Shown here in pieces: positions 4,069 to 64,000 of a stretch of DNA of 64,000 nt. Both the position numbers and the translations under genes were made by a program. Under the pieces are notes generated by a model. It worked only from the letters and a program-made list of their open reading frames with translations. It was not told the origin of the DNA and did not search any database. Source of the stretch: Romanomermis culicivorax (Eukaryota; Nematoda; Enoplea; Mermithida; Mermithidae); assembly GCA_963922205.1 (NCBI GenBank), contig CAWUHX010000069.1:310001-374000 (forward strand), given 5' to 3'. Within the stretch, counting starts at the first letter, position 1; the number at the start of each line of letters is the position of its first letter.

Positions 4069-4771
4069 GTAAGCGACCTAAGTTTTTAAACTTAGTTAAT
4101 CTTAAAATTTATTGGGCAAAGCAGGATGTTATAGCTTACGGGTGTCTAGATGAAGGCCTAGACAATTGTCAAAATTTAGTGGGAACAAATTTGTTCTGTC
4201 AACTTGCAAAAGTGTGGCAAAGCTGCCCGTAGCGCAAAATTTGGACTTTTTGCGAAACTACATCATTCCTCTACACACATAGCGAGTTGAATAATTTCGT
4301 CTATGTGATGGGGAAGAAGTGGAGTGTAGCAACTAGTCGACTAGGGGTAGATAATTTCAAAATTTACTTAAATTTCTAAATTCCATCTTAATCTATTTTT
4401 CTACGAATTTCCACATTTTGGGTAAATTAGTAAATATATTTTTAAATTTCTTCTTGGAAATTCTTAATTTATTAGTTGGATAGGCCGTTTTGGGCGTTGG
4501 ATTGAGATGGCATGCAGTCGAATGATGGAAGATGCAGGTGGTCTGTGCGTGTCCCGTATAAGGTAGAAGTCGGGGCCGCACTTGTGTTTAACTATCTGCC
4601 AACACTAACCCAATATATGTTTGGTACCTTATTGTCCCCTGCTTGCAATTTCTTTTTTTCTTTTTCCTATTTGTGCTTACTATCTGTGGTGAAGGTAGAA
4701 TTTAACCGATGTTTGTCCGCTTAGAAAGATTTCCATTAAAAAGTTGTAAACATTCTGTATGAATTTTTTAG
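4069..4771 (+). other. Intron in ORF3 of element A
   Basis: Begins GTAAGC after GATG and ends at ATTTTTTAG (AG at 4770-4771), a clear donor and acceptor. Length 703 bases. The equivalent introns in B (26487-26698, 212 bases) and E (12967-13176, minus, 210 bases) end in nearly the same TATTTTTAG and interrupt the same codon. The A intron is about 490 bases longer and contains a purine-rich tract ending at 4325. Confidence 0.7.
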
Positions 4772-9105: not shown

Positions 9106-9759
9106 TTTTATATAGCCGCATACTTTTTGGACCAAAATTCGTTATTTCGTACAAATTTTATTTCAAAAATATAAAAATACAAAAACACAAATAAAATACA
9201 AAATACAAAAAAATATATTATCTCGTTTTATTGTTGCTTTAAAATTTTAAAATTTTTTCTCGTTTCCGGTGCCCAAAAGTTGCCCGGCGAAATTTGTTAT
9301 TTCCGTCCATCTTATTTCGGGTGTGTACATAGCGCTCGTATTTTTCTTGTTTACTTTCAGGGCCTGAAAAAGATGAAGACGTGAAATTTTTATTTGCATT
9401 TATAAAATTATTTCGTAAATTTGAAGTATTTTATAGAAAATCTTTTTTACTGAGTAGATTCGTATTGGACGGAGCGACGTGGCGAGCAGCTGACCGTGGA
9501 GGAAGCGCACCTGGGGTACCTCATCACCGAAGCTGTAAAAACCAGTACATGGGAGAAGAGGAACGGCGACGCCCCGGATCTAGGCACAGATCGACGTCAA
9601 AGTCCAGCCGAACTACGTTCTTGATCATTTCCGGTAGCCTGAAAAGGAGTGCCCTGCCGAATGGATTGGTCAAGGTCGCCGTCACCTGAAGGACCTGGTA
9701 GGGGCTGGATCACATTTTGGAGGGGGTAGCCCCAAAAATTTGTTTTCGGAGGGGAAAAC
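9106..9759 (+). other. Element A 3' region, with a possible extra coding segment
   Basis: AT-rich to about 9360, then TTTACTTTCAG (a good splice acceptor, AG at 9359-9360). After it lies a GC-richer block (about 9466-9720) that is open for about 50 codons and contains LTVEEAHLGYLITEAV and, past two stops, RSPSPEGPGRG. The block may be a last exon of ORF3 or the remnant of another ORF. It ends at the polypurine tract. I see no homologue elsewhere in the window. Confidence 0.4.
9747..9759 (+). promoter_or_regulatory. Polypurine tract of element A
   Basis: CGGAGGGGAAAAC directly before the TGTTA start of the 3' LTR. This is the expected primer site for plus-strand DNA synthesis. Confidence 0.75.
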
Positions 9760-32171: not shown

Positions 32172-32175
32172 GTTT
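32172..32175. repeat. Target-site duplication of element D, left copy (GTTT)
   Basis: GTTT directly before the D LTR end at 32176; repeated at 50422-50425 directly after the other LTR end. Confidence 0.7.
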
Positions 32176-33076
32176 TGTAACGACCAGATTTTGTGTGAAG
32201 CACAAAACTTTAACCAAATGGGATGATATGGCGAACAAAACGGGGGCCCGGGCAGAACGGCTACGATAATACAACGAATGGTTGACGGTCGCTTGAACGT
32301 CCACAACACAAAATTGGACGGCGCATTGGCTTGCAAATAAAAATACGATTCGGTTTAACTGCTTTCGAAAACGGTTGCTTGCAAATAAAAACGAACAGCC
32401 GCGGATTTAAAAACGAAGAATTACAATAATCCAATAACTAACCAATAATGAATAAAATCACGCTTTGCTTCTCTTTTTATACGACGTTTTTGGCCACTCC
32501 CTGAGCATCACGGGAGGTCGTGCTTCTGTCCATCTTCTTCTGCCAATCGTCGCTTCCTGCTTTGCTTTTTATGCTTACTTAGTCACGCCTTTCTAATGCT
32601 TTCCTGGTACTGTATGCTTTTCCTGCTTCGCTTGGTTTCTACAGTGGGCTTAGCCACACCTCTGTGCTTCCGTGCATGCTTCCTGTATCTCTTTCTCTGA
32701 ATACACATGTTTTGTGGGGCTGTCGCTACCATTGCACTTGAGACTACTGTCTGGTGGGGCTTTTTACTTATTTTACTGTGTGCAGGTGTTGTTTACGATT
32801 TTTACGGGGGATTACAGTAGCCGTGGAATGTGTAGTTTAGTGTAGGTTCTAGGGGACCAGCTGCCATTTGTGCAAATTAATTGGGGCATCTTAATTGGGC
32901 TACCGGGGTGTGAACGGATCAAAATAAAGTACTTCACGTAATTTTATAGGAATGTTTGGGTGTGAATCCCAGACACCCTTGAGACGGTAAAATATGAAAA
33001 TGAATAATATTTAATAAATGTCTATCACATACAGTATGCTACATATTTACAGAATTGCTTTAGCGGGTACGTTACA
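32176..33076 (-). repeat. 3' LTR of element D
   Basis: 901 bases; TGTAAC...GTTACA ends on both strands. Nearly the same sequence as the C LTRs. It contains two copies of the motif TTTTATTTGCAAGCAA (minus strand) in the R/U5 part. Confidence 0.9.
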
Positions 33077-33107: not shown

Positions 33108-36100
33108 TCAAGGCTTTCGAGGGTAGAAAGGGGTTGTCTCATTTACATGTACCGTAAATGTGATATTCTTATGGGGGTGTTTGAGTGTGATGTTGGGGTA
33201 CATGAAATTTGTAACTGTATAGGGCCCATTTTGGGGACGGAGGAATTTGGGAGTCAGCCCTTGTTTACACGAATGATTTTTGTAAAGAATAAGATCACCT
33301 GCCTTGTAATGTATGTTCTGAGCATGCTTGTTATACTGAAGGGTATAGTGATCTTGGGCTTTTTGTAAGCTTTTCTGCACAGTTGAGAGTGCTTCTGTGA
33401 AATGCAATTTTACACGAAGGGTGTAATTGTCTAAATCAACCATGTAGGACGTGGGGAAAAAATTTAAAGCTGCATCTGATGGAAGATTAGCCTGTCTACC
33501 ATGGAGCAATTCAAATGGGGGATACGAGGTGCTATCATTCTTATGAATGTTAATCAAAAAAACGGCATAGGGTAGATAAGTATCCCAATCAGTGTGATTT
33601 GAATTGATGTACATGCCGATACGGGTGGCTAGAGTCTGGTTGCAACGCTCAACTTTCCCATTAGCGATGGGATGATATGGGGTGGTGTGAATTTTTTGAG
33701 TATTGCAAAAACTAGTGATCCTTGAAAAGAGATCAGATTAAAAATCGGAGCCACGATCACAATGGACGATTTTTGGGGACCCATGACGGCAAATAATTTT
33801 GGTTACGAATAACTTGGCAAAAGTGGCTGCAGTGATGTCGGGGGTCGGGAATGCCTCCACATATTTGGTGAAATAATCGATAAAAACAACAATGAATCGG
33901 TTGCCATCTTCAGTTAGGGGTAACGGCCCCATGCAATCAACACCGACTCTATCAAATGGACCAGTCGGCTGAATGGGTACCAGATTGACATGTATTCTAT
34001 GTCGGAGGGCTTTTTGTGTCTGGCATGGGTGGCAAGTTTTGCAGTAACGTTTGATATCATGGCTCATTTGGGGCCAAAAATATTTTTGCCTGAGCAAGTG
34101 TAAAGTTTTCTTGGCAGCAAAATGACCTGTGAATTTGCTGTCATGATGTGAGGCGATGAGATGCTGGATTTGTGACTTGGGGATGTATAGTTTCGCCTGT
34201 TTGTTGACTATATGAAAGAGGATGTTTTGATGCACTGCGAATTTGATCATAGTGAGGGGGTGTTTTTTGACGATTTTTGCTAAAATACTTTTGACAGTTG
34301 GGTCAGTGCGTTGGAGTTCAGCAAAATTTTTCTGTTGCTCTTCTTGTTCAGTTGCTTCGGCCTCAAGAACAGAATTTATGGTTGATAGTTCAGGGCGGGT
34401 TTCTAGTTGCTCAATATCAAAGGATTGCTTCGCTGTCTGGGAGGGGAATCGAGAAACAGCATCTGCGTTGTGGTTAGCAGTGCCTTTCTTAGGTCGAATG
34501 TCGAGTTGAATACCGGAGAGGGCTAATCCCCTTCTGTGAGACTGCCTGAACTGCTGTATGGTTAGTGTGTACAACAACATGTTGCTGGAAAAGATAAGGG
34601 TGGAAATACTTGACAAACTCAACTACTGCAAGGGTTTCCAACTCAGTTATTAGGTAGTTGCATTCTGCGGGTTTTAATGTGGGGCTCCCAAAAGCAATGG
34701 GGCAATCCTGACCTTTACTGTCTAGCTGACTGAGAATGGCGCTGATTCCGAGTTTTGAGGCGTCAGTTTGCAGAATAAACAGTTTTGTGAAATCGGGATG
34801 CTGCAGTATTGGGGCATGAATGAGCAATTCTTTTAGCTTATGGAATGGGTTTTGCTGTTCAGGGCCCCAGGAAAATTCTGTATTCTTTTTGAGTAGGGCT
34901 GTGAGTGGGCTAGAAATTTGGGAGCAATTTGGGATGAATCGACAATAATAAGAGGGTAGGCCAAGGAATGACTTCACTTCTTTTGAGCTTTTGGGCGTGG
35001 GTATGTCATAAATGGACTGTACCTTATTGGGGTCTGGTGAAATGCCTTGCTGAGAAATGAGGTGGCCTAAGTATTGGACTTGGGGCTGGCAGAATTTGCA
35101 TTTTTGTATATTTAGTTTAAGGCCAGCTTGGGAGAATCGGGCAAGAATAGTGTCTAAACGTTCCAGCATTTGGGCATGGGAGTCTGCAAAAACTAAAACA
35201 TCATCGAGATATACAAGGCATTTGTTAAATTGCAATCCGGAAAGGATAACATCCATTAACCTTTGGAATGTGGCTGGAGCATTGGTGAGTCCGAAGGGTA
35301 GGTAGTTGAGCTGATATTGTCCGGCTGAGCAATTGAATGCCGTTTTTTCTCTGTCTGCTTGTGCAATGGGAATGGAATAATATGCATTGGATTGATCGAG
35401 GGACGTAAAATATTTCATTCCACACTGGGTGTCTAGAATTTCGTCTATGCGGCGCAAAGGGTAGGTATCTTTTTTGGTTACTTTATTGAGGCCTCTAAAA
35501 TCAATGCATGAACGATGGCCTCCATCTTTTTTGGGAACTAAAACTGTATTGGTGCACCATGGAGAGTTGCTCTGGCTTATGACACCTGCTGCTGCGAGTT
35601 GCTCAACTTCTGCTTGTATGATTTGCTTTTTCTTTGGGGAGGTACGAAAAAGGTGCCTGCGTACGGGTTGGGAGCCTTTGGTGTCAATTGTATGTGAAAC
35701 AAGGGTGGTTCTGCCTACGTCCATTTTGGATTTAGCATATAGTGTAGGATACTTCGATAGGGTGCATAGAAGTTGAGTTTTTTCGGTTTCTGTGAGGTCA
35801 CTGGAGGTTAAATTAACATTTTCTTTTAACCATGTGAATGTATCAAAACAGTTGGGCTGGTTTTGCATGGAGGGGGTTACGTTAGCGGGAGCATTTTGTT
35901 TTGGGATGTAACAGGAGACTGTACCGACGCATGTTCCAGGGTAAAGAGTTTGGGCTGTTTCTTGTGTGTTTAGGACCGATATGCCTATGCGACTGTTCTG
36001 GTTTTCAGAGACACAAGCTGCGAAATGAACTTCGGGATTCTGTTTGGGTTTCGGAGTAAATTCAAGCTGTTTGGCTTGAAAGTACGATTTGGGCAAGGGG

Positions 36101-36753
36101 ACAGTAAATTCGGTGACTGTACGGGGTGGTAATTCTAGTTTCTCATCTAAGTAGGTTCCACCATGAGTCGAAAGGGGGCTATATTCTAGGCCATCACAGG
36201 GTAGTATAACCTTGCCAAATTTGACCTGAGATTTTTGATTGTTGATAGTGTATTCCGAAAATTGACTGAGAAAGTTTTTGCCTAGAAGGATGTCTGCTGT
36301 GCAATCTTTTTGGACATGTACCATTATTGTTTCCTGGATGGTTTGGGCTGTTACTGTAACAAAAGTGGTCACTACAAAGTGAATTGGAAGGTTATTTGCT
36401 GCTTTGGCTTGGACTAATGGGGGTTTCATGTCTAGCTGTAGAATTTGAGCGATTTGGGAGTCAATGAGTGAGTATACAGCGCCAGTGTTGATCGTGCCTT
36501 TTGTAATTAGCTTGCTATTAAGTGTGATTCGAATGTGAGGAGTATGTTTCTCAGGTACATTCTGGGGTGGTTTGTTTGATCCCGATTGATGAATTTGATT
36601 AATGAGTTCGATTGCAGGGGTTCTGGGGGTATCAATATCAACAAGGACGTATTTCTCCTGTGTTTGGGCCCCACGACGATTAGCTAATTCTAAGAGAGCA
36701 TGGCCGAATGATGGGGGAATGGTCTCATGTAAATGTCTGTTGTGTGATGGTAT
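33108..36753 (-). pseudogene. pol: Element D pol: protease, RT, RNase H and integrase
   Basis: Gypsy-type Pol in order protease, RT, RNase H, integrase, ending about 20 bases from the polypurine tract, so nothing follows pol. The frame continues directly from the glycoprotein. The protease active site reads NTGA where C has DTGA, so it is inactive. RT has the YLDD box (about 35225 region) and the blocks EVEQLAAAGVISQS and LPFGLTNAPATFQRLM. RNase H has QTDAS. Integrase has HHCC (HHDSKFTGH, CHPCQ) and the core VDCMGPLP...HCDRGSDF. Breaks: a frameshift near 34500-34620, TAA at 33736-33738 and a further break before 33614. The C-terminal domain carries NGPYTVTNF (GPY/F module). Confidence 0.92.
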
Positions 36754-38510
36754 TTAGTACGCATGTTCATTTGTGGCATGATGCTTTGGAGAGGGGAAAT
36801 ATTTTCGAAGAATGAGAAAAGAATAAAAGACGCCTGCAATGACTACAGTGATAATGGCTAGATTGATGATGATTTGCAGGTGTCCTTTGAGTAAATTATT
36901 TAATCCATCTATGAGGCTTTGGGTAGTGCCGGTGATTACATGTTCTATGCCTTGGCGGGCGCAAGAGAGGGTATTTCCGATTGCTTGGCCACTGCCTGAG
37001 ATCATGTTGTAAACTGTATCTGAGTTAAGAGACATTTGGGCGGTGTAATTGACGAGTTTTTTAATGACATTTTCGAGTGTGTGGGTTTTGTAAATGTATT
37101 GTTTCAAAAAGAGTAAGTTAATTGAAATAGTTGCAAGTTGATCATGAAAAATTGCAGGTGTGTTAAAATGAAAAAGGGAGAAATTTTGGTTCCAGACGAT
37201 TTCTAAGGATAGATTTGTGACATGCGGGGATCCTGTTTCACTGACCCATGTATTATTCTGTTTGTAAAGAGCTACATGCATGTGATGGCAGTCAACGGTT
37301 TGTGAGAAAGGGGTCAAATTATTGCCTCCTGGGTTTGAAAACATGAGTTCGCTGCCTATGAGAATGGGTGAAAGTTTGTAGCATGTTCCATTGATTTTAT
37401 GGTTGTAAATGACTTTAGATGCATTTACTTGTTTACAGGGCCAGACTGTGAGGGCTTCTCCTGTGAATTCTGCTATTATGTCCATTCGCTGTAGGAATGC
37501 ACATGCCCCAAGGGTTGCATCCAGGCGCAAAATTTGCCATACTAGATAAAGGTGACGCTGTGCCTGTCTGCATAATTCACTCAATACGTTTTTGAAATTT
37601 TGAATTTCGAATTCCTGGATTTTGTCTGCTAGATAATTTAGTTTTGTGTTAATCGGTTCAAAATCGTCAAAATTGTAGAGTGTAGTATGAGTTTCATTGG
37701 TTTTTGGGGTTAAAATTGCGTTATGATGTGGGGTGCTTTTGTCTAATTGTACAACAATGCCTTGTTCGGTTATAATGCTGTCTTGGATTTCTGGGCAGTT
37801 GGGGTTCGAAAAGAGTGTATTTTTAACCGAGAATGCAACTTGTAGCTCTTCTATTCGCATGTGGGTTTGCGTGAGTTTGATGGGATGTGTATTTTTGTAT
37901 TCAAAAGGGCATAGATTTTGGAATGCGGTTTCATTCCAGATAATGGACCTGTCGGTTGTTACACAATGTCCTGATGTTGGTTCGCATGACCCTAGGTCAC
38001 CTAATGTACCTGTCATAGATTTTCCACTCAAGATGCTATTTGTCCTATTTCTATGATGACGTTAGTGACTGAAGTACAGTGGTCTGTACAACACCATGTG
38101 TATTCTACACTTAGGGAGTTGTTTGTTGACCAAAATCCTGGTTCAGTTTCGTATAATTTTTGACTGTTGTGTTCTTTGTCTATAATGATTGCCTTACAAA
38201 CATGTGGGGTTAGATTTTGCATTTTGGTTTGGTTGAAGACAATACCTTTTGTGCCAAAAAATCCTGTATTAGTACAAATTTTTTGTTTGCAAACGCTGCA
38301 TTTGTATGCATCTGTAATGTGAGGTTTAGTGGAGGGGATATAGATTTTTCGGAATGTCTGTACCGGTTTGTCTACTGTGGAGGGGGCATGCATGATACAA
38401 GTATTGGTATGCTGATTGAATGACTGCTCAATGAAGTTCCACACATCTGAAATTGGGCACTACACGATGTTGTGATTATTATGCATAAAAATATACAATA
38501 CAATGGCCAA
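36754..38510 (-). pseudogene. env: Element D envelope-like glycoprotein, between gag and pol
   Basis: Envelope-like membrane protein of an endogenous retroelement. Many cysteines (TWCCTDHC, GDLGSC, GHC) and N-glycosylation sites, a glycine-rich membrane-proximal part (GSGQAIGNT, about 36990) and one transmembrane helix near 36810-36880 with a short basic tail. A hydrophobic leader is encoded near 38450-38500 but in another frame. A frameshift lies at about 38030 and a TAA at 36754-36756, where copy C has a glutamate codon. The pattern of a glycine-rich pre-membrane region plus one TM reminds me of class III (gB-like) fusogens such as those of chuviruses; that is by eye only. It would mediate entry; broken here. 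Confidence 0.8.
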
Positions 38511-40254
38511 TAGAACGTGTTATTGGAGGCGGCGGGGTACTGTATATTTTCGTTCTAGGCCGGTTTGGCGTGGCCGCTTTTGGTGTGTTTCGGTTTTGGG
38601 CTGAGGGGCTGGCTGGTTTGCAATCTGAACAGTCTGCAAACTTTAGAAGTTGAGTCATGGGATGGGGTTTGGATTTGCTTACTTGTGGGGATTGGTAGCA
38701 GTGTTTGGCAGGGGCAGAATTGGTAGGGTTTGGGGATCAGGCCCTGGAGGAGGGACAACAAGTTGCGACCTGTTTTCGATGGTTTCGGGGGCAGTGGGCG
38801 CCTTGGTGTCTTGTTTTCGGGGGATCTTGTAGCCTGCCGGTATAGTGGTCGGTGATTTTTCGATTTTGGTGGCTTCGGGCGTGGGGGGTGGTGAAATGGC
38901 GCACCAATTGGGTATGTTCAGGTCGAGGACGTATTCCTCACGACGGTGGTGGGTGTTGGGCATAATTGTTCTTAAAGTAGTTTGAGGGCCCTTAGTTATG
39001 GCGGGTAATGATTAGTAAAATGCAGGGTCATCAATGTCCATGAGGGGTTGGGGTTGCCTGTACTCAATGCAATTTTGAATATTACGACTTTGATGATTTG
39101 GACAGTATCTGCTTGTACGACCTCTCTGCTTGCATAGAAAACATTGAAAATTTGAGTAGGGTTTTGAAATGCAGTTATCAGATCTATGTCCTGTCTGGGA
39201 GCAGTTGATGCATCGGCTTTTACAATCACGGGTACTGTGATTATTACGAAAACAAATTTCACATGATTTTTGTCAGGCTACTGATTTACAATTACGAGCT
39301 ACATGTCCAAGTTGTCCGCACTGAAAGCATGTGGCTTGCCTAGGGGTAGTATTGTTCCTGTAAGCATTATTCCTACTGTAAGTGTTGTTACTGAAATTGT
39401 TGTAGCTACTCTGTTGTGGGGGTTTAGGTTTTTGTTTGATCTGCAACTGTAAATCTTTTACTTGTTGTTCCAACTGATGCAAAAGGTCCTGTTGGTCTGT
39501 ATTTTTGGTTAGGGAAAAGATGGGTTCGGGTTTTGGGGGTATAGATGGAAGGGCGTTGGATTTTAACTCATTTCTAAGGATTTGTTGTTCAATGTAAGCT
39601 GCTTCATCTGACATTTCTTTTAGAGTTGGGAACCGTCTATACTTAATTGCTTCCCTGATTTCATTTTGCATATCTTCTACAAAGAGGGGTTTTATGATCA
39701 TTTCTCGTGCGTCTGTGTTAAAGTTAGGGTAGGCGAGGGTTGTGAGGTGTTCTAGATAAACAAGAATTCAGTTACTGTTTCTTATCGCTTTTGTTTTCTC
39801 TCGCGTAAAAATTGTTGGTGTAGCTCATTATCTCGATTGTTTGGGAAAAAGGCCTGTAATGCTACTTTATACTGCTCGTATGTGTGGGGAGGGTTTTCGG
39901 AATTGGCTAAACTTTTGAATTTTGCTAACGTGGCTCCTCCTAAATGAATCTCTAAACATGCCAACTTTAACTGTACGTCTGTATCTTTCATGCCTTGGAG
40001 TGCCATGAATTGTTCTAATCTTTTATTCCATTCACCAAAATGTTGGGTCACGCCCCTGTGAATACTGTAGGTTTCGCGTAAAAATTATTTGCCATGTTAT
40101 TACGAATGTTTGCTGTTCTTAGATCGTCTATTAGGGTAGGGTTTACTGTATTCTGATTCAATTGTGTGCGTAGGGTACGAAAATGTTCTGAAAATAAATC
40201 GTTTATCTGTTCTCTAACGATTTCTCCTAAATGATCTTGCGTTTGGTGGGTCAT
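38479..40254 (-). pseudogene. gag: Element D gag with four CCHC zinc knuckles
   Basis: Gag starts at MTHQTQDHLGE (40254), but alignable coding sequence extends upstream to about 40490. Core at 40051-39273 (retrotransposon Gag fold: KLACLEIHLGGATLAKF, LRERKQKR). Then four knuckles: CFQCGQLGHVARNC (about 39335-39294), CEICFRNNHSTRDC, a CINCSQTGHRSDNC type, and CFLCKQRGRTSRYC, in which the histidine is replaced. A TGA (39273-39275) separates knuckles 1 and 2. A proline-rich tail (38963-38679) follows that is deleted in C, and the gene ends at TAA 38479-38481. Other breaks lie near 40050 and 39780-39702. It forms the particle and packages RNA. Confidence 0.85.
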
Positions 40255-40482
40255 TCTTGGTTTACGCTGGGATTTCTGCTTAAATGCTTCAATTTTTGCT
40301 TCATGCTGTATTCATTTAAATGTATCGCTTAATGTTTCGTTGGGGGGAATTTCCAGTTTGCTTTCTACCAATACTGTCTTACTGTAGGAAATAGTTACTA
40401 CTGTATTATCTAATGCTTCAAAATGCCCGGATAAGAGTACACCTAATTGGGGGCAGGGAGTTCCAGTGGTTAACGGTATGGT

Positions 40483-40498
40483 ACGGTCACCAAAATAT
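40483..40498 (-). promoter_or_regulatory. Primer binding site region of element D
   Basis: On the minus strand TATTT then TGGTGACCGTACC follows the 5' LTR, equivalent to 42115 onward in C. The primer tRNA is not identified. Confidence 0.55.
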
Positions 40499-41231
40499 GT
40501 GATGACCAGATTTTGTGTGAAGCACTTTACTTTAACCCAATGGACGTTACGGCAGGAACGGCTATAACGGAACGGGGGCGCGGGCGGTACGGCTACGATA
40601 ATACATGAATGGTCGACGGTCGCTTGAACGTCAACAACACAAAATTAGATGGCGCATTTGCTTGCAAATAAAATATGACTCCGTTTAACTGCTTTCGAAA
40701 ACGGTTGCTTGCAAATAAAATGAACGGCGGCGGATCGAAAACGAACAATTACAATAATCTAATAACTAACAAAATCACGCTTTGCTTCTCCTTTTATACG
40801 ACCTCTTTGGCCACTCCCTGGGCGTCGCGGGAGGTCGCGCTTCTGTCCATCTTCTTTGGCCAATCCTCGCTTCCTGCTTCGCTTTCTATGCTTACTTAGT
40901 CACTCCTCTAATGCTTTCCTGGTACTGTATGCTTTTCGTGCTTCGCTTTGCTTTCTATGGTGGGCTTAGCCACACCTCTGTGCTTCTGTGCATGCTTCCT
41001 GTATCTGTTTCGCTGAATACACATGTTTTGTGGGGCCGTCACTACCGTTACACTTGAGACTACTGTCTGGCAGGGCTTTTACGTATTTTACTGTGTGCAA
41101 GTGTTGTTTATGATTTTTACAGGGGATTACGGTAGCTGTGGAATGTGTAGTTTAGTGTAGGTTCTAGGGAACCAGCTGCCGTTTGTGCAAATTAATTGGG
41201 GCATCTTAATTGGGCTACCGGGGTGTGAACG
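40499..41231 (-). repeat. 5' LTR of element D, inner part (split by insertion of C)
   Basis: LTR in minus orientation from TGTGAT (mutated TGTAAC end) to GTGTGAACG, where element C interrupts it. The remainder continues at 50079. The minus-strand TATA-like GTATAAAAG lies near 40790. Confidence 0.85.
41228..41231. repeat. Target-site duplication of element C, left copy (AACG)
   Basis: AACG at 41228-41231 and again at 50075-50078. Removing C and one copy restores GTGAACGGATCAAA, as in the uninterrupted D 3' LTR near 32917. Confidence 0.92.
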
Positions 41232-42109
41232 TGTAATGTACCTGCTAAAGCAGTACTGTAAATATGTAGCATACTGTATGTGATAGACATTTATTAGATA
41301 TTATTTCATTTTCATATTTTATCGTCTCAAGGGTGTCTGGGATTCACACCCAAACATTCCTACAAAATTACCTGAAGTACTTTATTTTGATCCGTTCACA
41401 CCCTGGTAGCCCAATTAAGATGCCCCAATTAATTTGCACAAACGGCAGCTGTTCCCCTAGAACCTACACTAAACTACACATTCCACAGCTACCGTAATCC
41501 CCCCCTAAAAATTGTAAACAACACCTGCACACAGTAAAATACGTAGAAGCCCCGCCAGACAGTAGTCTCAAGTGTAACGGTAGCGGCGGCCCCACAAAAC
41601 ATGTGTATACAGAGAAACCGATACAGGAAGCATGCACAGAAGCACAGAGGTGTGGCCAAGCCCACCGTAGAAAGCAAGTGAAGCACGAAAAGCATACAGT
41701 ACCAGGAAAGCATTAGAAAGGCGTAACTAAGAAAGCATAAAAAGCGTAGCAGGAAGCGAAGATTGGCGGAAGAAGATGGATAGAAGCTCGACCTCCCGCG
41801 ACGCCCAGGGAGTGGCCAAAACGTCCTATAAAAGAAGAAGCAAAGCGTGATTTAGTTAGTTATTATTTTGTGAATTTTGATCCGCCGCCCTTCGTTTTTA
41901 TTTGCAAGCAACCGTCTTCGAAAGCAATTAAACGGCGTCGTATATTTTATTTGCAAGCAACCCCGCCGTCCCTTTTTGTTATTCGACGTTCAAGCAACGG
42001 TCGATCTTTCGTGTATTATCGCCCGTATTGTACTGCCCGCACATCTTTGTTCCCATCGTATCGACCGTTGGTTAGAAGTAAAGTACCTCACACAAATCTG
42101 GTCGTTACA
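41232..42109 (+). repeat. 5' LTR of element C
   Basis: 878 bases, TGTAATG...GTCGTTACA. TATAAAAG at 41827-41834 is a likely core promoter. I count about six differences from the 3' LTR in the first 190 bases. Confidence 0.93.
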
Positions 42110-42130: not shown

Positions 42131-43730
42131 CCGTTAACCACTGGAACTCCCTGCCCCCAATTAGGTGTACTCTTATCCGGGCATTTAGAAGCATTAGATA
42201 ATACAGTAGTAATCATTTCCTACAGTAAGACAGTATTCGTAGAAAGCAAACTGGAAATCTCCTCCAACGAAACATTAAGCAATACATTTAAACGAATCCA
42301 GCGTGAAGCAAAAATTGAAGCATTTTAGCATAAATCCCAGCCTAAACCAAGAATGACCCACAAAACACAAGATCATTTAGGAGAAATCGTTAGAGAACAG
42401 ATAAACGATTTATTTTCAGAACATTTTCGTACCCTATGCACACAATTGAATCAGAATACAGTAAACCCTACCCTAATAGACGATTTAAGAACAGCAAACA
42501 TTCGTAATAACATAGCAAATAATTTTTACGCAAAACCTACAGTATTCACGGGTGGCGTGACCCAACATTTCGGTGAATAGAACAAAAGATTAGAACAATT
42601 CATGGCACTCCAAGGCATGAAAGATACAGACGTACAGTTAAAGTTGGCATGTTTAGAAATTCATTTAGGAGGAGCCGCGTTAGCCAAATTCAAAAGTTTA
42701 GCCAATTCTCAAAACCCTCCCCACACATACGAGCAGTATAAAGTTGCATTACAGGCATTTTTCCCAAACAATACAGATAATGAGCTACATCAACAATTTT
42801 TACACGAGAGAAAACAAAAGAGATCAGAAACAGTAACTGAATTCTTATTTGATCTAGAACATCTCGCAACCCTCGCCTACCCTAACTTTAACACAGACGC
42901 ACGAGAAATGATCATAAAACCCCTCTTTGTAGAAGGCATGCAAATTGAAATCAGGGAAGCAATTAAGTATAGAAGGTTCGCAACTCTAAAAGAAATGTCA
43001 GAGGAAGCAGCTTACATTGAACAGCAAATCCTTAGAAATGAGTTAAAATCCAACCTCCTTCCATTTATACCCCCAAAACCCAAACCCATCTTTTCTCTAA
43101 CCAAAAACACAGACCAACAAGACCTTTTGCATCAGTTAGAACAACAAGTAAAAGATTTACAGTTGCAGATCAAACAAAAACCTCAACCCCCACAACAGAG
43201 TAGCTACAACAATTTCACTAACAATACTTTCAGCAGGAATAATGCTTACAGGAACAATACCACCCCTAGCCAACCCACATGCTTCCAGTGTGGACAAATT
43301 GGACACGTAGCTCGTAATTGTAAATCAGTAGGCACCCGAAAATCATGTAATCTGTTTTCGTAATAATCACAGTACGCGTGATTGTAAAAGCCGATGCATC
43401 CACTGCTCCCAAACAGGACATAGATCTGATAACTGCCTTTCCAAACCCTACTCAAATTTTCAATGTTTTATATGCAAGCAGAGAGGTCATACAAGCAGGT
43501 ACTGTCCAAATCAGCAGAGTCGTAATATTCAAAATTGCATTGAGTACAGGCTACCCCAACCCCTCATGGACATTGATGACCCCGCATTTTACTCAAAATT
43601 ACCCGCCATAACTAACGGTCCCCAGACTACTTTAGGAACCATTATGCCCACTACCCAGAAAAAACACAGTGCCCTGCCGCCTCCACTAAAACATTCTATT
43701 GGCCGATGTTTTGTATTTTTCTTTGTATAA
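42131..43730 (+). pseudogene. gag: Element C gag with four CCHC zinc knuckles (broken)
   Basis: First ATG at 42353 (MTHKTQDHLGE). D shows the coding frame extending about 70 codons upstream (from about 42115), so a non-ATG or more upstream start is possible. In C a TAG at 42327 separates this leader. The core runs 42353-43363 with a TAG at 42578-42580. Knuckle 1 (CFQCGQIGHVARNC) is at about 43281-43322. A two-base loss near 43345 breaks the frame. Knuckles 2-4 (...CFRNNHSTRDC, CIHCSQTGHRSDNC, CFICKQRGHTSRYC) follow to about 43525. A deletion relative to D removes about 360 bases of proline-rich tail. Stop TAA 43728-43730 overlaps the glycoprotein start. Confidence 0.87.
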
Positions 43731-45588
43731 TAATCCCGACATCGTGTAGTGCCCAATTTCAGATGTGTGGAATTTCATTGAGTGGTCACTCAGTCAGCAT
43801 ACCAAAACTTGTATCATGCATGCCCCCTTCCACAGTAGACAAACCCATACAGACATTCCGAAATATCTATTACCCCTCCACTAAACCTCACATAACAGAG
43901 GCATACAAATGCAGTGTTCGCAAACGCAAAATTTGTACTAATACAGGATTTTTTGGATCAAAAGTATTGTCTTCGACCAAACCGAAATGCAAAATCTAAC
44001 CCCCCATGTTTGTAAGGCAATTGTTATAGACAAAGAACACAACGGTCAAAAATTAGACGAAACCCAACCAGGATTTTGGTCAACAAACAACTCCCTAAGC
44101 GTAGAATACACATGGTGTTGTACAGACCATTGTACCTCGGTCACTAACCTCATCATTGAAATAGGACAAATAGCATCTTGGAATGGAAAATCTATGACAG
44201 GTCCAGTAGGTGACCTGGGGTCATGCAAACCGACATCAGGTCATTGTGTCACAGCTGACGGATCCATTATCTGGAATGAAACAGCATTTGAAAACTTATG
44301 TCCCTTCGAATACAAAAACACACATCCCATCAAACTCACACAAACCTACATGATAATAGAAGGACTACAAGGTGCATTTTCAGTTAAAAACACACTCTTT
44401 TCGAACCCCAATTGCCCAAAAATCCAAGACAGCATTCTAACCGAACAAGGCATTATTGTACAATTAGACGAAAGCACCCCACATCGTAACGCATTTTTAA
44501 CCCCAAAAACCAACGAAACTCATACTACACTCTATGATTTTGATGATTTTGAACCCATTAACGCGAAACTAAATTATCTAGCAGACGAAATCCAGGAATT
44601 CGAAATTAAAAATTTCAAAAACATATGGAGTGAATTATGCAGACAGGCACAGCGTCACCTTGATCTCGTATGGCAAATTTTGCACCTTGATGCAACCCTT
44701 GGGGCGCCTGCATTCCTACAGCGAACTGACATCATAGCAGAATTCACAGGAGAAGCCCTCACAGTCTGGCCCTGCAAGGAAGTAAATGCATCTAAAATCT
44801 TTTATAACCACAAAATCAACCAAACATGCTACAAACTTTTGCCCATTCTCGTAGGAACCAAACTCATGTTTTCGAATCCAGGAGGCAATGATTTGACCCT
44901 TTTTTCACAAACCATTGACTGCCATCACATGCATGTAGCCCTTTACAAACAGAATAATACATGGGTCAGTGAAACAGGATCCCCACATGTCACAAATTTA
45001 CCTTTAGAAATTGTCTGGAACCAAAATTTCTCCCTTTTCCATTTTGATACACCCACCATTTTTCATGATCAACTTGCAACTATTTCAACCAACTTACTCT
45101 TTTTGAAACAATACATTTACAAAACTCACACAATCGAAAATGTTGTCAAAAAACTCGTCAATTACACCGCCCAAATGTCTCTCAATTCTGATACAGTTTA
45201 CAACATGATCTCAGGCACTGGCCAAGCACTTGGAAATACCCTCTCTGGCGCCGGTCAAGGCATAGAACATGTAATAACCGGTACCACCCAAAGTCTCACG
45301 GATGGATTAATTAATTTGCTCAAAGGACCCCTACAAATCATTATCAATCTAGCCATCATTACTGTAGTTATTGCAGGCGTCTTTTATTCTTTTCTCATTC
45401 TTCAAAAATATTTCCCCTCACTCAAGCATCATGCCACACATGAACATGCGTATGAAATACCATCAAACAACAGACATCTACATGAGACCATCCCCCCATC
45501 ATTCGGCCATGCTCTCTTAGAATTAGCTAATCGTCATGGGGCACAAATGCAGCAGAAATACATCCTTGTCAATGTTGATACCCCCTGA
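43706..45588 (+). pseudogene. env: Element C envelope-like glycoprotein, between gag and pol
   Basis: ATG 43706 opens a hydrophobic leader (MFCIFLCIIIPTSCSA, signal-peptide-like) that overlaps the gag end. The main frame is 43987-45588. About a dozen NxS/T sites, paired cysteines, a glycine-rich stretch before the membrane (GTGQALGNT, near 45220) and a transmembrane helix (about 45345-45410) followed by a roughly 60-residue tail. Breaks: a one-base gain near 43832 and a frame change near 43970-43990. It ends at TGA 45586-45588, where D has an arginine codon, and protease follows in the same frame. This is a virus-like entry protein of an endogenous element, type unassigned; a class III fusogen is a guess. 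Confidence 0.82.
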
Positions 45589-48500
45589 ACTCCTGCAATC
45601 GAACTCATTAATCAAATTCACCAATCTGCATCAAACAAGCCACCCCAAAATGTACCTGAGAAGCATACCCCTCATATTCCAATCACACTTAACGGCAAAT
45701 TAATCACAAAAGGCATGATTGACACTGGCGCAGTCTACTCACTCATTGATTCACAGATCTCTCAACTTTTACAGTTAGACATGGAACCCCTGCTAGTCCA
45801 AGCAAAATCAGCAAATAATCTCCCGATTCACTTTGTAGGGACCACTTTCGTCACAGTGACAGCCCAAACGATCCAGGAAACAATCATAGTCCATGTCCAA
45901 AAAGATTGCACAGCAGACATCTTTCTAGGCAAAAACTTTCTCAGTTGATTTTCGGAATATACTATCAACAATCAGAAATCTCAGGTCAAATTTGGCAATG
46001 TAATACTACCTTGTGACGGCCTAGAATACAGCCCACTTTCGACCCGTGGTGGAACTTATTTAGACGAGAAATTAGAATTACCACCCCATACAGTAACCGA
46101 ATTTACTGTCCCCTTACCCAAATCGTACTTACAGGTCAAACAGCTTGAATTCACCCTGAAACCCAAGCAGAATCCTAAAGTCCATTTCGCAGCTTGTATA
46201 TCTGAAAAACAGTCGCATACGCACATCAGTCCTAAACACACAAGAAACAGCCCAAACTCTTTACCCTGGAAAATGCATCGGTACAGTCTCCTGTTACATT
46301 CCAAAATGAAATGCTCCCGCTAATGTAACCCCCTCAACGCAAAACCAGCCCAATTGTTTTGATACATTCACATGGTTAAAAGAAAATGTTAATTTAGCCT
46401 CCAGTGACCTGACAGAAGCAGAAAAAATGCAACTCCTACGAGCCCTATCGAAGTACCCTACATTATATGCTAAATCCAAAATTGACGTGGGTAGAACCAC
46501 CCTTGTTTCACATACAATTGACACCAATGGCTCCCAACCTGTAGGTAGACAACTTTATCTGACTTCCCCAAAAGAAAAGCAAATCATACAAGCAGAAGTT
46601 GAGCAACTCGCAGCAGCAGGTGTCATAAGCCAAAGCAATTCTCCATGGTGTACCAACACAGTTTTAGTTCCCAAAAAAGATGGAGGCCATCATTTATGCA
46701 TTGATTTTAGAGGCCTCAATAAAGTAACCAAAAAAGATACATATCCCCTGCCCCACATAAATGAAATTCTCGACACCCTCCGTGGAATGAAATATTTTAC
46801 GTCCCTTGACCAATCCAATGCATATTATTCCATTCCCATAGCACAAGCAGACAGAGGAAAAATGGCCTTTAATTGCTCAGCCGGCCAGTATCAATTCAAC
46901 TATCTCCCCTTTGGACTCACCAATGCTCCAGCCACATTCCAAAGGCTAATGGATGCTATTCTTTCGGGACTCCAATGGAACACATGCTTTGTCTATCTCG
47001 ACGATGTTTTAGTCTTCGCAGATTCCCATGCCCAAATGCTGGAATGTTTAAACACTAATCTTGCCAGATTCTCACAAGCAGGCCTTAAGCTAAACATTCA
47101 AAAATGCAAATTCTGCCAACCCCAAGTCCAATACTTAGGCCAAGTCATTTCTCAACAAGGCATTTCACCAGATCCCCATAAGGTACAGGCCATCTGTGAC
47201 ATACCCACACCCAAATGTTCAAAAGAAGTTAAGTCATTCCTTGGCCTACCCTCGTATTATTGCAGATTCATCCCAAATTGCTCCCAAGTTTCCAGCCCAC
47301 TCACAGCTCTACTCAAAAAGCATTCGGAATTTTCCTGGCGCCCCGAACAGCAAAACGCATTCACCAAGCTAAAAGAATTACTCATTCATGCCCCAATACT
47401 GCAGCATCCCGATTTCACAAAACTGTTTATTCTGCAAACTGATGCCTCAAAACTCAGAATCGGCGCCATTCTCAGTCAGCTAGATAGTAAAGGTCAAGAT
47501 CGCCCCATTGCTTTTGGGAGCCGCACATTGAAACCCGCAGAACGCAACTACCCGATAACTGAGTTGGAAACCCTTGCAGTAGTTGAGTTTGTCAAGTATT
47601 TCCGCCCCTATCTTCTCCAGCAACATGTTATTGTACATACCGACCATACAGCAGTTCAGGCAGTTTTACAAAAGGAAAACCCGTCCCACCGCATTGCCCC
47701 TTGGGGATTAGCCCTCTCTGGTATTCAGCTAGACATTCGACCTAAGAAAGGCACTGCTAACTGCAATGCAGATGCAGTCTCTCAATTCCCCTCACATACA
47801 GCGAAGCAATCCTTTGACATTGAGCAACTCGAAACCTGCCCCAAAATATCAACAATCAATTCTGTTCTTGAGGCCAAAGCAACTGAACAAGAAGAGCAAC
47901 AGAAACATTTCGCGGAACTCCAACGCACTGATCCAACTGTCAAAAGCATTTTAGCAAAAGTCCCCCAAAAACACCCCCTTACCCTGATCAAATTCGCAGT
48001 GCATCAAAACATCCTCTTTCGTATAGTCGACAAACAGGCAAAACTATACATTCCCAAGTCACAAGTCCAGCATCTCATAACCTCACATCATGACACCAAA
48101 TTCACAGGTCATTTTGCAGCCAGGAAAACTTTACACTTGCTCAGACAAAAATATTTTTGGCCCCAAATGAGCCCTGATATCAAACGTTACTGCAAAACTT
48201 GCCACCCATGTCAGACACAGAAAGCTCTCCGGCACAAAGTGCATGCAAATTTGGTACCAATTCAGCTGACTAGCCCATTTGATAGAGTCGGTGATGATTG
48301 CATGGGACCGTTACCCCTCACTGAAGACGGCAACCGATTCATTGTCGTTTTCATCGATTATTTCACAAAGTATGTAGAGGCATTCCCAACTCCTGACATC
48401 ACTGCAGCCACTATCGCCAAGTTATTCGTAACCAAAATTGTTTGCCGTCATGGGTCCCCAAAAATCATCCATTGTGATCGTGGCTCCGATTTTGTATCCG

Positions 48501-49167
48501 ATCTCTTCTCACGAGTCACTAGTTTATGCAATACTCAGAAAATTCATACCACCCCATACCATCCCATTCCCAACGGGGAAGTTGAACATTGTAACCAAAC
48601 TCTAGCCACCCGTCTCCGCATGTATATCAATTCAAATCACACTGATTGGGATACTTATCTGCCCTATGCCGTTTTTTCCATCAATATTCATAAAAATGAT
48701 AGCACTTCATATCCCCCATTTGAATTACTCCACGGTAGGCAAGCTAATCTGCCGTCAGATGCAGCCTTAAATTTTTCCCCACGTCCCACATGGTTGATTT
48801 AGACGATTACGCCCTTCGTGTGAAATCACATTTTACGGAGGCACTCTCAACCGTGCAGAAAAGTTTACAAAAAGCCCAGGACCACTTTACCCGTCAGTAT
48901 AACAAGCATGCTCAGAGCATACATTACAAGGCAGGTGATCTTATTCTTTACAAAAATCATTCTTGTAAACAAGGGCTGACTCCCAAATTCCTCCCTCGCC
49001 AAAACGGGCCCCATACAGTTACAAATTTCATGTACCCCAATGTTACACTTAAACACCCCCATAAGAATATCACATTTACGGTACATGTAAACGAGACAAC
49101 CCCTTTCTACCCTCGGCAAGCACCTATTGAATCTGCCCCCACCTCTCCTCACCCTCGAAAGCCTTGA
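45589..49167 (+). pseudogene. pol: Element C pol: protease, RT, RNase H and integrase
   Basis: Protease MIDTGAVYSLIDSQI with DTG at 45721-45729 (active-site form), and FLGKNFL near 45925; TGA at 45946-45948 where D has glutamine. A five-base loss near 46215 changes frame. RT-RNase H-integrase is then open in one long frame, 46427-48802: YLDD near 46995, RNase H QTDAS near 47437, integrase HHCC (HHDTKFTGH, CHPCQ) and the core DDCMGPLP...HCDRGSDF...GEVEHCNQTL. One frame change near 48785 leads to the C-terminal module (48790-49167). The gene stops about 20 bases before the polypurine tract. It is the better preserved of the two twins. Confidence 0.94.
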
Positions 49168-49185: not shown

Positions 49186-49198
49186 GGAAGGAGGGAAA
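49186..49198 (+). promoter_or_regulatory. Polypurine tract of element C
   Basis: GGAAGGAGGGAAA immediately before the TGTAAC of the 3' LTR. Confidence 0.88.
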
Positions 49199-50074
49199 TG
49201 TAACGTACCTGCTAAAGCAGTACTGTAAATATGTAGCATACTGTATGTGATAGACATTTATTAGATATTATTTCATTTTCGTATTTTATCGTCTCAAGGG
49301 TGTCTGGGATTCACACCCAAACATTCCCACAAAATTACGTGAAGTACTTTATTTTGATCCGTTCACACCCCAGTAGCCCAATTAAGATGCCCCAATTAAT
49401 TTGCACGAACGGCAGCTGTTCCCCTAGAACCTACACTAAACTACACATTCCACAGCTACCGTAATCCCCCCTAAAAATCGTAAACAACACCTGCACACAG
49501 TAAAATAGGTAGAAGCCCCGCCAGACAGTAGTCTCAAGTGTAACGGTAGCGGCGGCCCCACAAAACATGTGTATACTGAGAAACTGATACAGGAAGCATG
49601 CACAGAAGCACAGAGGTGTGGCCAAGCCCACCCTAGAAAGCAAGCGAAGCACGAAAAGCATACAGTACCAGGAAAGCATTAGAAAGGCATAACTAAGAAA
49701 GCATAAAAAGCATAGCAGGAAGCGATGATTGGCGGAAGAAGATGGACAGAAGCTCGACCTCTCGCGACGCCCAGGGAGTGGCCAAAACGTCATATAAAAG
49801 AAGAAGCAAAGCTTGATTTAGTTAGTTATTATTTTGTGAATTTTATACGCAGCCGTTCGTTTTTATTTGCAAGCAACCATCTTCGAAAGCAATTAAACCG
49901 CGTCGTTCATTTTATTTGCAAGCAACCGCGCTGTCCCTTTTTGTTATTCGATGTTCAAGCGACTGTGGATCATTCGTGTATTATCGCCTGTATTGTACCA
50001 CCCGCGCCCCTTTGTTCCCGCGGTATCGACCGTTGGTTAGAAGTAAAGTACCTCACACAAATCTGGTTGTTACA
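49199..50074 (+). repeat. 3' LTR of element C
   Basis: 876 bases, TGTAACGTAC...GGTTGTTACA, six-base terminal inverted repeats, TATAAAAG near 49793. It is followed by the AACG target duplication. Confidence 0.93.
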
Positions 50075-50078
50075 AACG
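50075..50078. repeat. Target-site duplication of element C, right copy (AACG)
   Basis: Matches 41228-41231; see the left copy. Confidence 0.92.
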
Positions 50079-50239
50079 GATCAAAATAAAGTACTTCACG
50101 TAATTTTATAGGAATGTTTGGGTGTGAATCCCTGACACCCTTGAGACGATAAAATGCGAAAATAAAACAATATCTAATAAATGTCTATCACATACAGTAT
50201 GCTACATATTTACAGTACTGCTTTGGCAGGTACGTTACA
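50079..50239 (-). repeat. 5' LTR of element D, outer part
   Basis: GATCAAAATAAAGTAC to GTACGTTACA, the continuation of 40499-41231 beyond the inserted C. Confidence 0.85.
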
Positions 50240-50421
50240 TTGGGCTACTGGGGTGTGAATGGATCAAAATAAAGTACTTCACGTAATTTTATAGGAATGT
50301 TTGGGTGTGAATCCCAGACACCCTTGAGAGGGTAAAATACGAAAATGAATAATATTTAAAAAATGTCTATCACATACAGTATGCTACATATTTACAGTAC
50401 TGCTTTAGCGGGTACGTTACA
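50240..50421 (-). repeat. Tandem extra copy of the LTR end of element D
   Basis: A second 182-base copy of the LTR terminus (TTGGGCTACTGGGG to GGGTACGTTACA), directly adjoining 50239. It is followed by GTTT, which matches the left flank of D. It resembles the D 3' LTR more closely than the inner copy does. Confidence 0.8.
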
Positions 50422-50425
50422 GTTT
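50422..50425. repeat. Target-site duplication of element D, right copy (GTTT)
   Basis: Matches 32172-32175. Confidence 0.7.
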
Positions 50426-55179: not shown

Positions 55180-55182
55180 TTA

Positions 55183-55692
55183 TTGCTTTGAACGATTCAA
55201 CAATGCCGGGTGCATCAACGTGACGTCTAAATCTGGATTATGACTTTTGAGCGAATTGCGCGAATAATATTTCACCAAATCGCTCAAACAGGCGAAATAA
55301 TTTTCCGTGCCTTCGAACCCGAACGAATATCGCTGTTGAGCGGACGACGCGGGACTTTGATCTTCCGCGTTGAACTTTGGCTTAGAAATTTTCTTCTCTA
55401 TCATACAATTTTGAATTTTTTGCTTACAGACGACGCTCAAAGCGTAGAAACCGTGTTTTGTTTCGGATGGACGGATCAAAAACGTACCGTCTTTGGCTAT
55501 TTTGATTTTCTTTCCGTCGCCGAACTTTTCGTTGTTCTCCATTAAAAGATTAAAAGCTTCTTGTTTGCTGGACGAAGGTTTCATTAACCAATGATCGACC
55601 ACTTCCAAGACACTCTGAGGCGGTATATAATCGGAACCTAATTTAGGCGGTGACTTTTTGACGACAGCCATAATACCACTTTTTCTACTAGT
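55183..55692 (-). CDS. PIK3R1-like: PI3K regulatory subunit, terminal exon with C-terminal SH2 domain
   Basis: Adaptor subunit that binds phosphotyrosine proteins and holds the p110 lipid kinase. The exon opens after TTTTCCAG (acceptor AG at plus 55693-55694) and ends in a TAA at 55180-55182. The SH2 fold has GTFLIRPS with the phosphotyrosine-binding arginine, HGFYALSVVCKQKIQNCMI and LVKYYSRNSLKSHNPDLDV. The last block, leading to TLMHPAL and a short tail, is the typical end of p85 proteins. A 20-residue insertion sits between two strands. It lies downstream of the inter-SH2 exon on the same strand, which makes this the C-terminal SH2. The phase fits that exon (phase 0). A stand-alone SH2 adaptor is less likely. 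Confidence 0.85.
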
Positions 55693-63501: not shown

Positions 63502-63512
63502 TTGAAAAATAG

Positions 63513-63583
63513 GGTGTGGTCAGGAGTAGAACCTGGGTTACCAGCATTCCGGGCTGATGTTCTCACCACTAGACCACCACACC
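63513..63583 (-). repeat. tRNA-like SINE head, left arm
   Basis: GGTGTGG...CCACACC acceptor stem, A box TGGTCTAGTGG, B box GGTTCTACTCC, anticodon stem TCAGC/GCTGG with loop CCGGAAT (GGA in the anticodon position). Position 33 is C instead of T, so it is not a functional tRNA. Confidence 0.65.
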
Positions 63584-63833
63584 ACGAGGTGAACCCAGAT
63601 TAAGGTGCTCTCCTTGGCTACAATTTTTAGCATACAGCTCCAATGCTTGGTGGTCGTGAACCTACGACCTTTGGTAAGTAGCAGCGTACCAGTAGCAACT
63701 TTATTGGTCGGCAGTTCAAAGCAGCAGGTACGCTGCTACTTGCCAAAGGTCGTAGGTTCACGACCACCAAGCATTGGAGTTGTATGCTAAAAATCGTAGC
63801 TAAGGGGAGCACCTTAATCTGGGTTCACCTTGT

Positions 63834-63906
63834 GGTGTGGTGGTCTAGTGTGGTGAGGACATCGGCCCGGAATGCTCGTAACACAGGTTCAACTCCTGGC
63901 TACACC
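63834..63906 (+). repeat. tRNA-like SINE head, right arm
   Basis: Same structure as the left arm with B box GGTTCAACTCC and a two-base insertion in the D arm (CTAGTGTGGTGAGG). CTATTTTTC follows as a possible pol III terminator. Confidence 0.6.
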
Positions 63907-64000
63907 CTATTTTTCGAACCGTTTTTTCCACAATGAGAACCATGCCCGAAATTATTTTCCTCATTTCCAAATTTTTTCAACAAAAGACCCCATTTATGGA

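What the first reader, a model, noticed from the sequence alone, without database searches (positions are those of the whole stretch)
43706..46000. Envelope-like gene between gag and pol in a Ty3/gypsy family
In both C (plus) and D (minus) the order is LTR, gag, membrane glycoprotein, protease-RT-RNase H-integrase, polypurine tract, LTR. Retroviruses and errantiviruses place env after pol. The same order in two copies with different damage and separate target duplications (AACG, GTTT) rules out a local rearrangement. Seen: order, TM helix, cysteines, glycosylation sites. Inference: a lineage with a novel genome plan.
Basis: partly seen in the sequence, partly recalled or inferred. Interest (0 to 1): 0.92.

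Follow-up and report, generated by a model that had tools for sequence, protein, structure and literature searches.

The report
Retroelement with envelope inside its polyprotein
A young family of virus-like jumping genes carries a virus-derived membrane-fusion protein between its capsid and enzyme parts, all in one reading frame, an arrangement unlike the retrovirus plan in which the envelope gene comes last.

Summary
Window copies C (+) and D (-) are Ty3/gypsy elements with gag, a glycoprotein gene, then PR-RT-RH-IN; C is nested inside D's 5' LTR. The glycoprotein matches Pfam Monjiviricetes_fusion (E 1.3e-17), the chuvirus-type fusion protein. In the source genome 62 of 63 gag-RT pairs found have env-type spacing (4178-4243 nt); the other is window copy C, which also has env. 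In 14 of 20 copies examined by pieces, gag, env and pol are ONE frame of 2407-2409 codons, with a signal-peptide-like segment at the start of env and one TM helix at its end. Sixteen LTR pairs are 97.8-100% identical; env is strongly constrained (pN/pS 0.037). Pieces of four more families in the genome have env in frame with RT; two other long-frame families show no env at that place. A public 2293-aa protein has the order zinc knuckle-env-PR-RT-IN.

Best reading: a Gag-Env-Pol polyprotein that threads the ER membrane. Order and single frame are shown; one-chain translation, topology and entry function are inferred. No paper with this plan was found in the ten searches made.

The parts
41228..41231 (.). 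target duplication AACG of copy C, left; the right one is 50075-50078
   Evidence: read
41232..42109 (+). C 5' LTR (878 nt), TGTAA...TTACA; inserted in the 5' LTR of D
   Evidence: 94.8% identical to 49199-50074
42353..43657 (+). C gag: gag core, then four zinc knuckles spread over two frames; several frame breaks; 398 nt of its 3' part absent relative to D
   Evidence: (zf-CCHC, Retrotrans_gag)
43706..43753 (+). signal-peptide-like segment at the start of env
   Evidence: hydropathy of the same segment in L010, L012, L029
43754..45480 (+). C env: chuvirus-type glycoprotein, ectodomain, TM (about 45337-45402) and short tail; the N-terminal part lies in another frame than 43987-45588 because of damage
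   Evidence: (PF24664 at 44512-45027)
45670..45990 (+). protease, active site DTGA at 45721-45732; in the env frame
   Evidence: PR in open copies
46427..48802 (+). RT, RNase H, integrase
   Evidence: closest solved relative Ty3-G polyprotein
48790..49167 (+). ORF overlapping the end of the integrase ORF, presumably the integrase C-terminal part in another frame (inference)
49187..49198 (+). polypurine tract
   Evidence: read (last nine bases 49190-49198)
49199..50074 (+). C 3' LTR
32176..33076 (-). D 3' LTR; outer duplication GTTT at 32172-32175 and 50422-50425
34489..36429 (-). D ORF with protease part, RT and RNase H
36754..38551 (-). D env in broken frames (ORFs 36754-38031 and 38028-38444)
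   Evidence: (PF24664 6.4e-17)
38552..38949 (-). D gag 3' part that C lacks
38950..40497 (-). D gag and leader, frame breaks
40498..41231 (-). D 5' LTR, inner part
50079..50421 (-). D 5' LTR, outer part, separated from the inner part by C

Best explanation
A recently mobile Ty3/gypsy family took up a chuvirus-type fusion glycoprotein between gag and protease and kept everything in one reading frame. Shown: gene order, single frame, 4-bp duplications, young LTRs, constraint on env, recurrence in other families. Inferred: the genomic RNA is translated as one Gag-Env-PR-RT-RH-IN chain. The signal peptide inside the chain opens ER translocation and signal peptidase frees Gag on the cytosolic side; the ectodomain folds in the lumen; the single TM stops transfer, so Pol is made as a cytosolic tail of Env and is cut off by the element's own protease. 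Gag particles then bud with Env, which serves cell-to-cell or germline entry. The threading resembles how flaviviruses make capsid, envelope and enzymes from one chain (analogy recalled).
For: Single frame over gag knuckles-env-PR-RT in 22 of 30 loci and from gag ATG to the end of pol in 14 of 20 (these 20 were picked from the best env matches, so open copies are over-represented). Frames of 2400 aa or more at 53 of 88 env, 69 of 141 RT and 57 of 150 gag matches. 49 of 63 gag-RT distances keep the frame, 13 of them at a length other than the mode. Env pN/pS 0.037, PR-RT 0.064 over 231 pairs. PF24664 match. Two hydrophobic segments only, at the two ends of env, in three open copies over 1488 residues. 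No Met within 130 residues before the signal core in 10 of 22 open copies. LTR identity 97.8-100% in 16 pairs and 4-bp duplications in 16 of 20 copies. Same order in P0122 and P0123; env in frame with RT in pieces of C382, C147, C150 and C72.
Against: No transcript, protein or particle data. 12 of 22 open copies do have a Met two residues before the signal core, so a separate env start is possible there. Splice sites were not tested. Equal amounts of Gag, Env and Pol would be unusual for a budding particle (recalled). Fold not predicted (tool off); gB matches are individually weak (E 0.021 at best). In 8 of 30 loci and 6 of 20 copies the frame is broken or cut.
Confidence: 0.62

Rival explanations
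1. Env, and perhaps Pol, come from spliced messages as in retroviruses and errantiviruses; the continuous frame is a by-product and little or no Gag-Env-Pol chain is made.
For: 12 of 22 open copies have a Met two residues before the signal core. Splicing is how Env is usually made in retroviruses (recalled).
Against: 10 of 22 open copies have no Met within 130 residues of it. The frame is kept through both borders even where lengths differ, which separate messages would not require.
Confidence: 0.22
2. The chain is made, but the glycoprotein serves another role than entry, such as anchoring Gag-Pol assembly at a membrane or blocking superinfection.
For: Env is constrained, but nothing here shows entry; Pol directly follows the TM in frame.
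Against: Full ectodomain with 14 of 19 Cys conserved across elements of Ty3/gypsy and BEL-like type fits a working fusion protein.
Confidence: 0.12
3. Rearrangement, assembly artefact or passenger gene without function.
For: Both window copies are damaged.
Against: 88 scored env matches in many places, 63 gag-RT pairs all with env-type spacing, a different 4-bp duplication read per copy in 16 of 20, pN/pS 0.037, same plan elsewhere.
Confidence: 0.02

Closest known systems
Anakin: BEL/Pao elements with a chuvirus glycoprotein, mosquitoes (PMC7642597, passages read)
   Same: LTR element that captured a chuvirus-type glycoprotein
   Different: BEL/Pao, not Ty3/gypsy; the passages speak of envelope-like genes of BEL elements (Roo, Tas, Cer-7) downstream of the polyprotein; Anakin's own layout was not in the passages seen
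Dingle: Ty3/gypsy with gB-like env, annelid (PMC7854359, passages read)
   Same: Ty3/gypsy element with a class III (gB-like) env
   Different: env protein described as found downstream from the integrase
Gypsy- and BEL-associated Jingchuvirales glycoproteins in arthropods (PMC10084718, abstract passages and Results section read)
   Same: Chuvirus-type glycoproteins next to LTR element sequence, Gypsy included
   Different: Most reported with fragmentary elements; two in complete elements (Bemisia, unclassified; Anopheles, Anakin); no gag-env-pol order in the parts read
Insect errantiviruses and retroviruses (recalled; PMC13172572 passages)
   Same: Env-bearing LTR elements; the passages mention type III fusion glycoproteins in gypsy and BEL elements
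   Different: env after pol (recalled), here between gag and PR
Single-ORF Gag-Pol elements such as Tf1 (recalled)
   Same: one frame for Gag and Pol
   Different: no env in the chain
Flavivirus polyprotein (recalled)
   Same: capsid, envelope and enzymes in one membrane-threading chain
   Different: no kinship claimed; analogy of mechanism only

Membership tests
Ty3/gypsy (Metaviridae) | Pol most similar to Ty3-type Pol | tested here: met
   PDB sequence search: Ty3-G polyprotein 1.5e-113, far ahead of caulimovirus (2.8e-55) and retroviral RT
Ty3/gypsy (Metaviridae) | PR-RT-RH-IN order, zinc-knuckle gag, LTRs with TG...CA ends and 4-bp duplications | tested here: met
Ty3/gypsy (Metaviridae) | placement in a named Ty3/gypsy clade | not tested
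   no named clade references were at hand; trees used unnamed relatives
Errantivirus / retrovirus plan | env downstream of pol | tested here: not met
   frame ends about 30 nt before the 3' LTR in 14 of 20 copies; env lies between gag and PR
BEL/Pao Anakin | BEL/Pao Pol | tested here: not met
   Pol is Ty3-type
BEL/Pao Anakin | chuvirus-type glycoprotein | tested here: met
   PF24664
Jingchuvirales/Monjiviricetes glycoprotein | match to the family profile above the curated cut-off | tested here: met
   63.5 and 61.2 bits, cut-off 27
Jingchuvirales/Monjiviricetes glycoprotein | nesting among exogenous chuvirus sequences in a tree | not tested
   no exogenous sequences were fetched
Class III fusion protein | gB/VSV-G-like fold | tested here: inconclusive
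   structure prediction switched off; 10 of 15 PDB sequence matches are gB but the best E is 0.021
Troyka | CG...CG termini and 3-bp duplications (PMC12440569, abstract and first part read) | tested here: not met
   TG...CA ends and 4-bp duplications
Gag-Env-Pol polyprotein element (proposed here) | one open frame through gag, env and pol | tested here: met
   14 of 20 copies, 22 of 30 loci over the middle part; not met in the damaged window copies themselves
Gag-Env-Pol polyprotein element (proposed here) | Gag, Env and Pol translated as one chain | not testable with these tools
   needs RNA and protein data

The most novel reading that the evidence does not exclude
A reverse-transcribing, enveloped mobile element whose whole proteome is one membrane-threading Gag-Env-Pol polyprotein: host signal peptidase cuts the Gag/Env border, Pol is born as the cytosolic tail of a class III fusogen, and the plan has lasted long enough to diversify into several families (RT 47-66% identical to the window family where measured) and to occur in sequences from other sources.
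Probability: 0.55. Interest if true: 0.9.

Novelty: new variant of a known kind. Interest (0 to 1): 0.8.

Why it matters
Retroviruses and env-bearing retrotransposons as generally described put env last and express it apart (recalled). An env inside the Gag-Pol frame breaks that rule and forces a different answer to three old questions: how much Env is made relative to Gag, how Pol reaches the particle, and when the protease turns on. It offers a natural case for testing whether membrane anchoring can stand in for Gag-Pol fusion. It widens the known use of chuvirus-type glycoproteins by mobile elements, and gives a gene-order trait by which other genomes can be screened.

Tried and rejected
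Local rearrangement: rejected, because C is nested in D's LTR and many copies share the order. Env after pol: rejected for the 14 copies with an intact 3' part. Env-less copies: none among 63 gag-RT pairs, but both lists were capped (141 of 7748 RT and 150 of 3357 gag candidates scored), so rare ones could be missed. Troyka: rejected on termini.

A single RT clade for the plan: not established. In one search window C and D, C382, P0122, P0002, P0003 and P0004 form a group with 99% support, but P0123 lies elsewhere. A test did not reject holding nine rows together, P0123 included (p 0.854), but that set was named after the tree was seen. In one search C147 joins the 99% group and C150 falls just outside it (94%), while P0123 sits in another supported set (96%). 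In one search the C72 family, only 176 residues of RT, was nearest to rows outside the group. Env status of most public RT relatives cannot be read: only 4 of up to 122 have 450 or more residues before RT, and 2 of those 4 (not named in the output) showed neither a hydrophobic segment nor a zinc knuckle there. IMG/VR scan with env: nothing confirmed. Host identity: not found; the mitochondrial gene search did not complete. Not tested: splice sites, tRNA primer, direct comparison with exogenous chuviruses.

Mended on checking: one search used a hand-trimmed RT list and searches did not correct for matches that start one residue late; one search repeats these counts with the full lists and the correction (13, not 20, in-frame distances differ from the mode). 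Copies were chosen from the best env matches, so the shares of open frames are not genome-wide rates.
Full report
What was checked. The window is G000:C69:310001-374000 of an unnamed 359-Mb genome in 595 contigs. A nearby ORF with an SH2 domain, whose best solved relatives are PI3-kinase p85 alpha subunits, points to an animal host (inference). Copies C and D were delimited by self-comparison and by reading the borders. C has LTRs at 41232-42109 and 49199-50074, 94.8% identical, and the duplication AACG. D is on the minus strand, has the duplication GTTT, and its 5' LTR is split by C. They are two integrations, the younger inside the older. Their internal parts are 89.2% identical over 5465 columns and 91.0% over 2293.

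What the middle gene is. The 533-aa ORF at 43987-45588 and the D ORF match Pfam PF24664, Monjiviricetes_fusion, at 1.3e-17 and 6.4e-17; matches to herpes gB (0.011 and 0.00097) are below the curated cut-off. A search of 5.8 billion proteins, limited to lengths near the query's, returned one protein, P0001, 33% identical over 88% of the query; its start has a weak DUF5641 match, below the cut-off, as in BEL/Pao Pol (recalled). The single sequence matched nothing in the PDB. A profile of four envs gave 15 PDB matches up to E 10, of which 10 are herpesvirus gB, best E 0.021, all over one stretch of the profile. So the gene is a chuvirus-type glycoprotein by profile; a class III fold is probable but not shown.

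The order in the genome. Env found 88 scored matches of 3871 candidates, 93-100% identical; the damaged D env is not among them. Of the 88, 57 have an RT match 2440-2445 nt downstream among the 141 scored RT matches, and one more has an RT at 6479 nt; 43 have a gag match upstream, 42 of them 1787-1795 nt away and the window copy 1385. The gag and RT lists gave 63 same-strand pairs: 62 are 4178-4243 nt apart and one, window copy C with its gag deletion, is 3825. None has the roughly 2.4 kb that a lack of env would give. Counts are lower bounds, because only the best candidates are scored.

One reading frame. In 22 of 30 env loci of up to 4464 nt the env frame has no stop from the gag zinc knuckles to RT; the 30 include the window's own locus, which is not open. 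For 20 of the 30 loci the 5' and 3' stretches were fetched apart. In 14 of 20 the frame is open from the gag ATG to a stop about 30 nt before the 3' LTR, 2407-2409 codons. The other six (L013, L014, L015, L020, L024, L027) are broken by stops or frameshifts, or cut or nested. Sixteen LTR pairs aligned over 880 nt or more are 97.8-100% identical, two of them identical throughout; the other four aligned only in part (98.7-100%). A 4-bp duplication can be read in 16 of 20 copies. The family was active recently. Frames of at least 2400 aa stand at 53 of 88 env, 69 of 141 RT and 57 of 150 gag matches. Of the 63 gag-RT distances 49 keep the frame, 36 at the commonest value and 13 at others; 14 do not.

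Constraint. Over 231 pairs of the 22 open copies, env has pS 0.116 and pN 0.0043 (ratio 0.037), PR-RT 0.064, and the env N-terminal part 0.32. These copies were picked for open frames and share ancestry, so this is no formal test, but env is at least as constrained as RT. Window env C against four open copies gives 0.12-0.15, as expected after decay in place. Env is thus most likely needed for the family's spread.

How it may work. Hydropathy over 1488 residues of three open copies shows two segments only: one at the start of env (1.82-1.95) and one at its end (2.56-2.84), with basic residues after the second. The simplest topology is Gag outside, ectodomain in the lumen, Pol outside. In 10 of 22 open copies no Met lies within 130 residues before the signal core; in 12 of 22 one lies two residues before it. 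The first group argues against a separate env start, the second allows it. Signal peptidase at the first border and the element's protease at the second are inferences.

Other families. A PF24664 search of the genome gave 68 scored matches of 2320 candidates, all over the cut-off, with differing profile ranges and frames up to 2578 aa. Four families were sampled in small pieces. C382: a signal-peptide-like segment in the env frame after a proline-rich tail (no zinc knuckle in the 801 nt seen), and PR-RT in the env frame, RT 66% identical to the window's. C147: RT 55% identical in the env frame, gag with three zinc knuckles and one stop within gag. C150: RT 47% identical and a zinc knuckle, both in the env frame without stops in the pieces seen. 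Negative controls: two other long-frame families, C5 and C8, show no env match in the 1.2 kb fetched at that place; C5 has a weak gag match there, C8 no family match; env elsewhere in them was not excluded. In public proteins P0123 (2293 aa) has zinc knuckle 321-337, env 741-898, PR 1083-1183, RT 1407-1566 and integrase core 1939-2037; P0122 (1424 aa) has env 272-437, PR 635-726 and RT 968-1128. P0002 has a hydrophobic segment before PR in one protein, of unknown kind. RT trees group most but not all of these, so one capture or several remains open.

Literature. Ten searches were made. The last, for six phrases naming env between gag and pol or Env-Pol fusions, found 0 papers. The library lacks most subscription papers. 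Nearest in print: Anakin (PMC7642597, passages) and Dingle (PMC7854359, passages), the latter with env downstream of the integrase. PMC10084718 (passages and Results section) reports Gypsy-associated glycoprotein EVEs. PMC13172572 (passages) mentions type III glycoproteins in gypsy and BEL. PMC5408684 (passages) describes rotifer env-like ORFs downstream of pol. PMC13269885 (passages) and PMC12992720 (term search without a match) gave nothing on gene order. PMC12440569 (abstract and first of five parts) gave the Troyka traits.

Verdict. The finding is real, the inference of a novel genome plan is supported, and the stronger fact is the single frame. My odds: order and frame about 0.97, env functional about 0.85, one-chain membrane-threading mechanism about 0.6.

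Noticed in passing
window 46-9115: Another Ty3/gypsy-type pol (RT-RNase H 46-2142, integrase 2182-3480) followed by long ORFs 4759-6732 and 7805-9115 without a Pfam match; by eye the first has exonuclease-like motifs (unproved).
   Followed up: partly
L085 (G000:C5), L086 (G000:C8): Families with 2011- and 2233-aa frames around RT but no env before PR in the piece seen; what fills the extra length is unknown.
   Followed up: partly
G000:C180, C2, C149, C293: Matches of one family spaced about 8.4 kb (C180, C2, C149) or 7.5 kb (C293) in a row, which looks like tandem elements sharing LTRs.
   Followed up: no
G000:C122:531836: RT match in an open frame of 3612 aa, longer than the others of this family; content not looked at.
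   Followed up: no
L080 (G000:C382): Where the window family has DTG at the protease active site, this family reads DCG; sequencing variant, one copy or real is unknown.
   Followed up: no
P0001: A chuvirus-type env in frame after a DUF5641-like start, so env may be fused to the end of a BEL/Pao Pol.
   Followed up: partly
window 63512-63907: Two tRNA-Ser(GGA) genes in opposite orientation, about 250 nt apart.
   Followed up: no
window 55180-55671: ORF with an SH2 domain, closest to PI3-kinase p85 alpha; host gene exon or pseudogene.
   Followed up: partly
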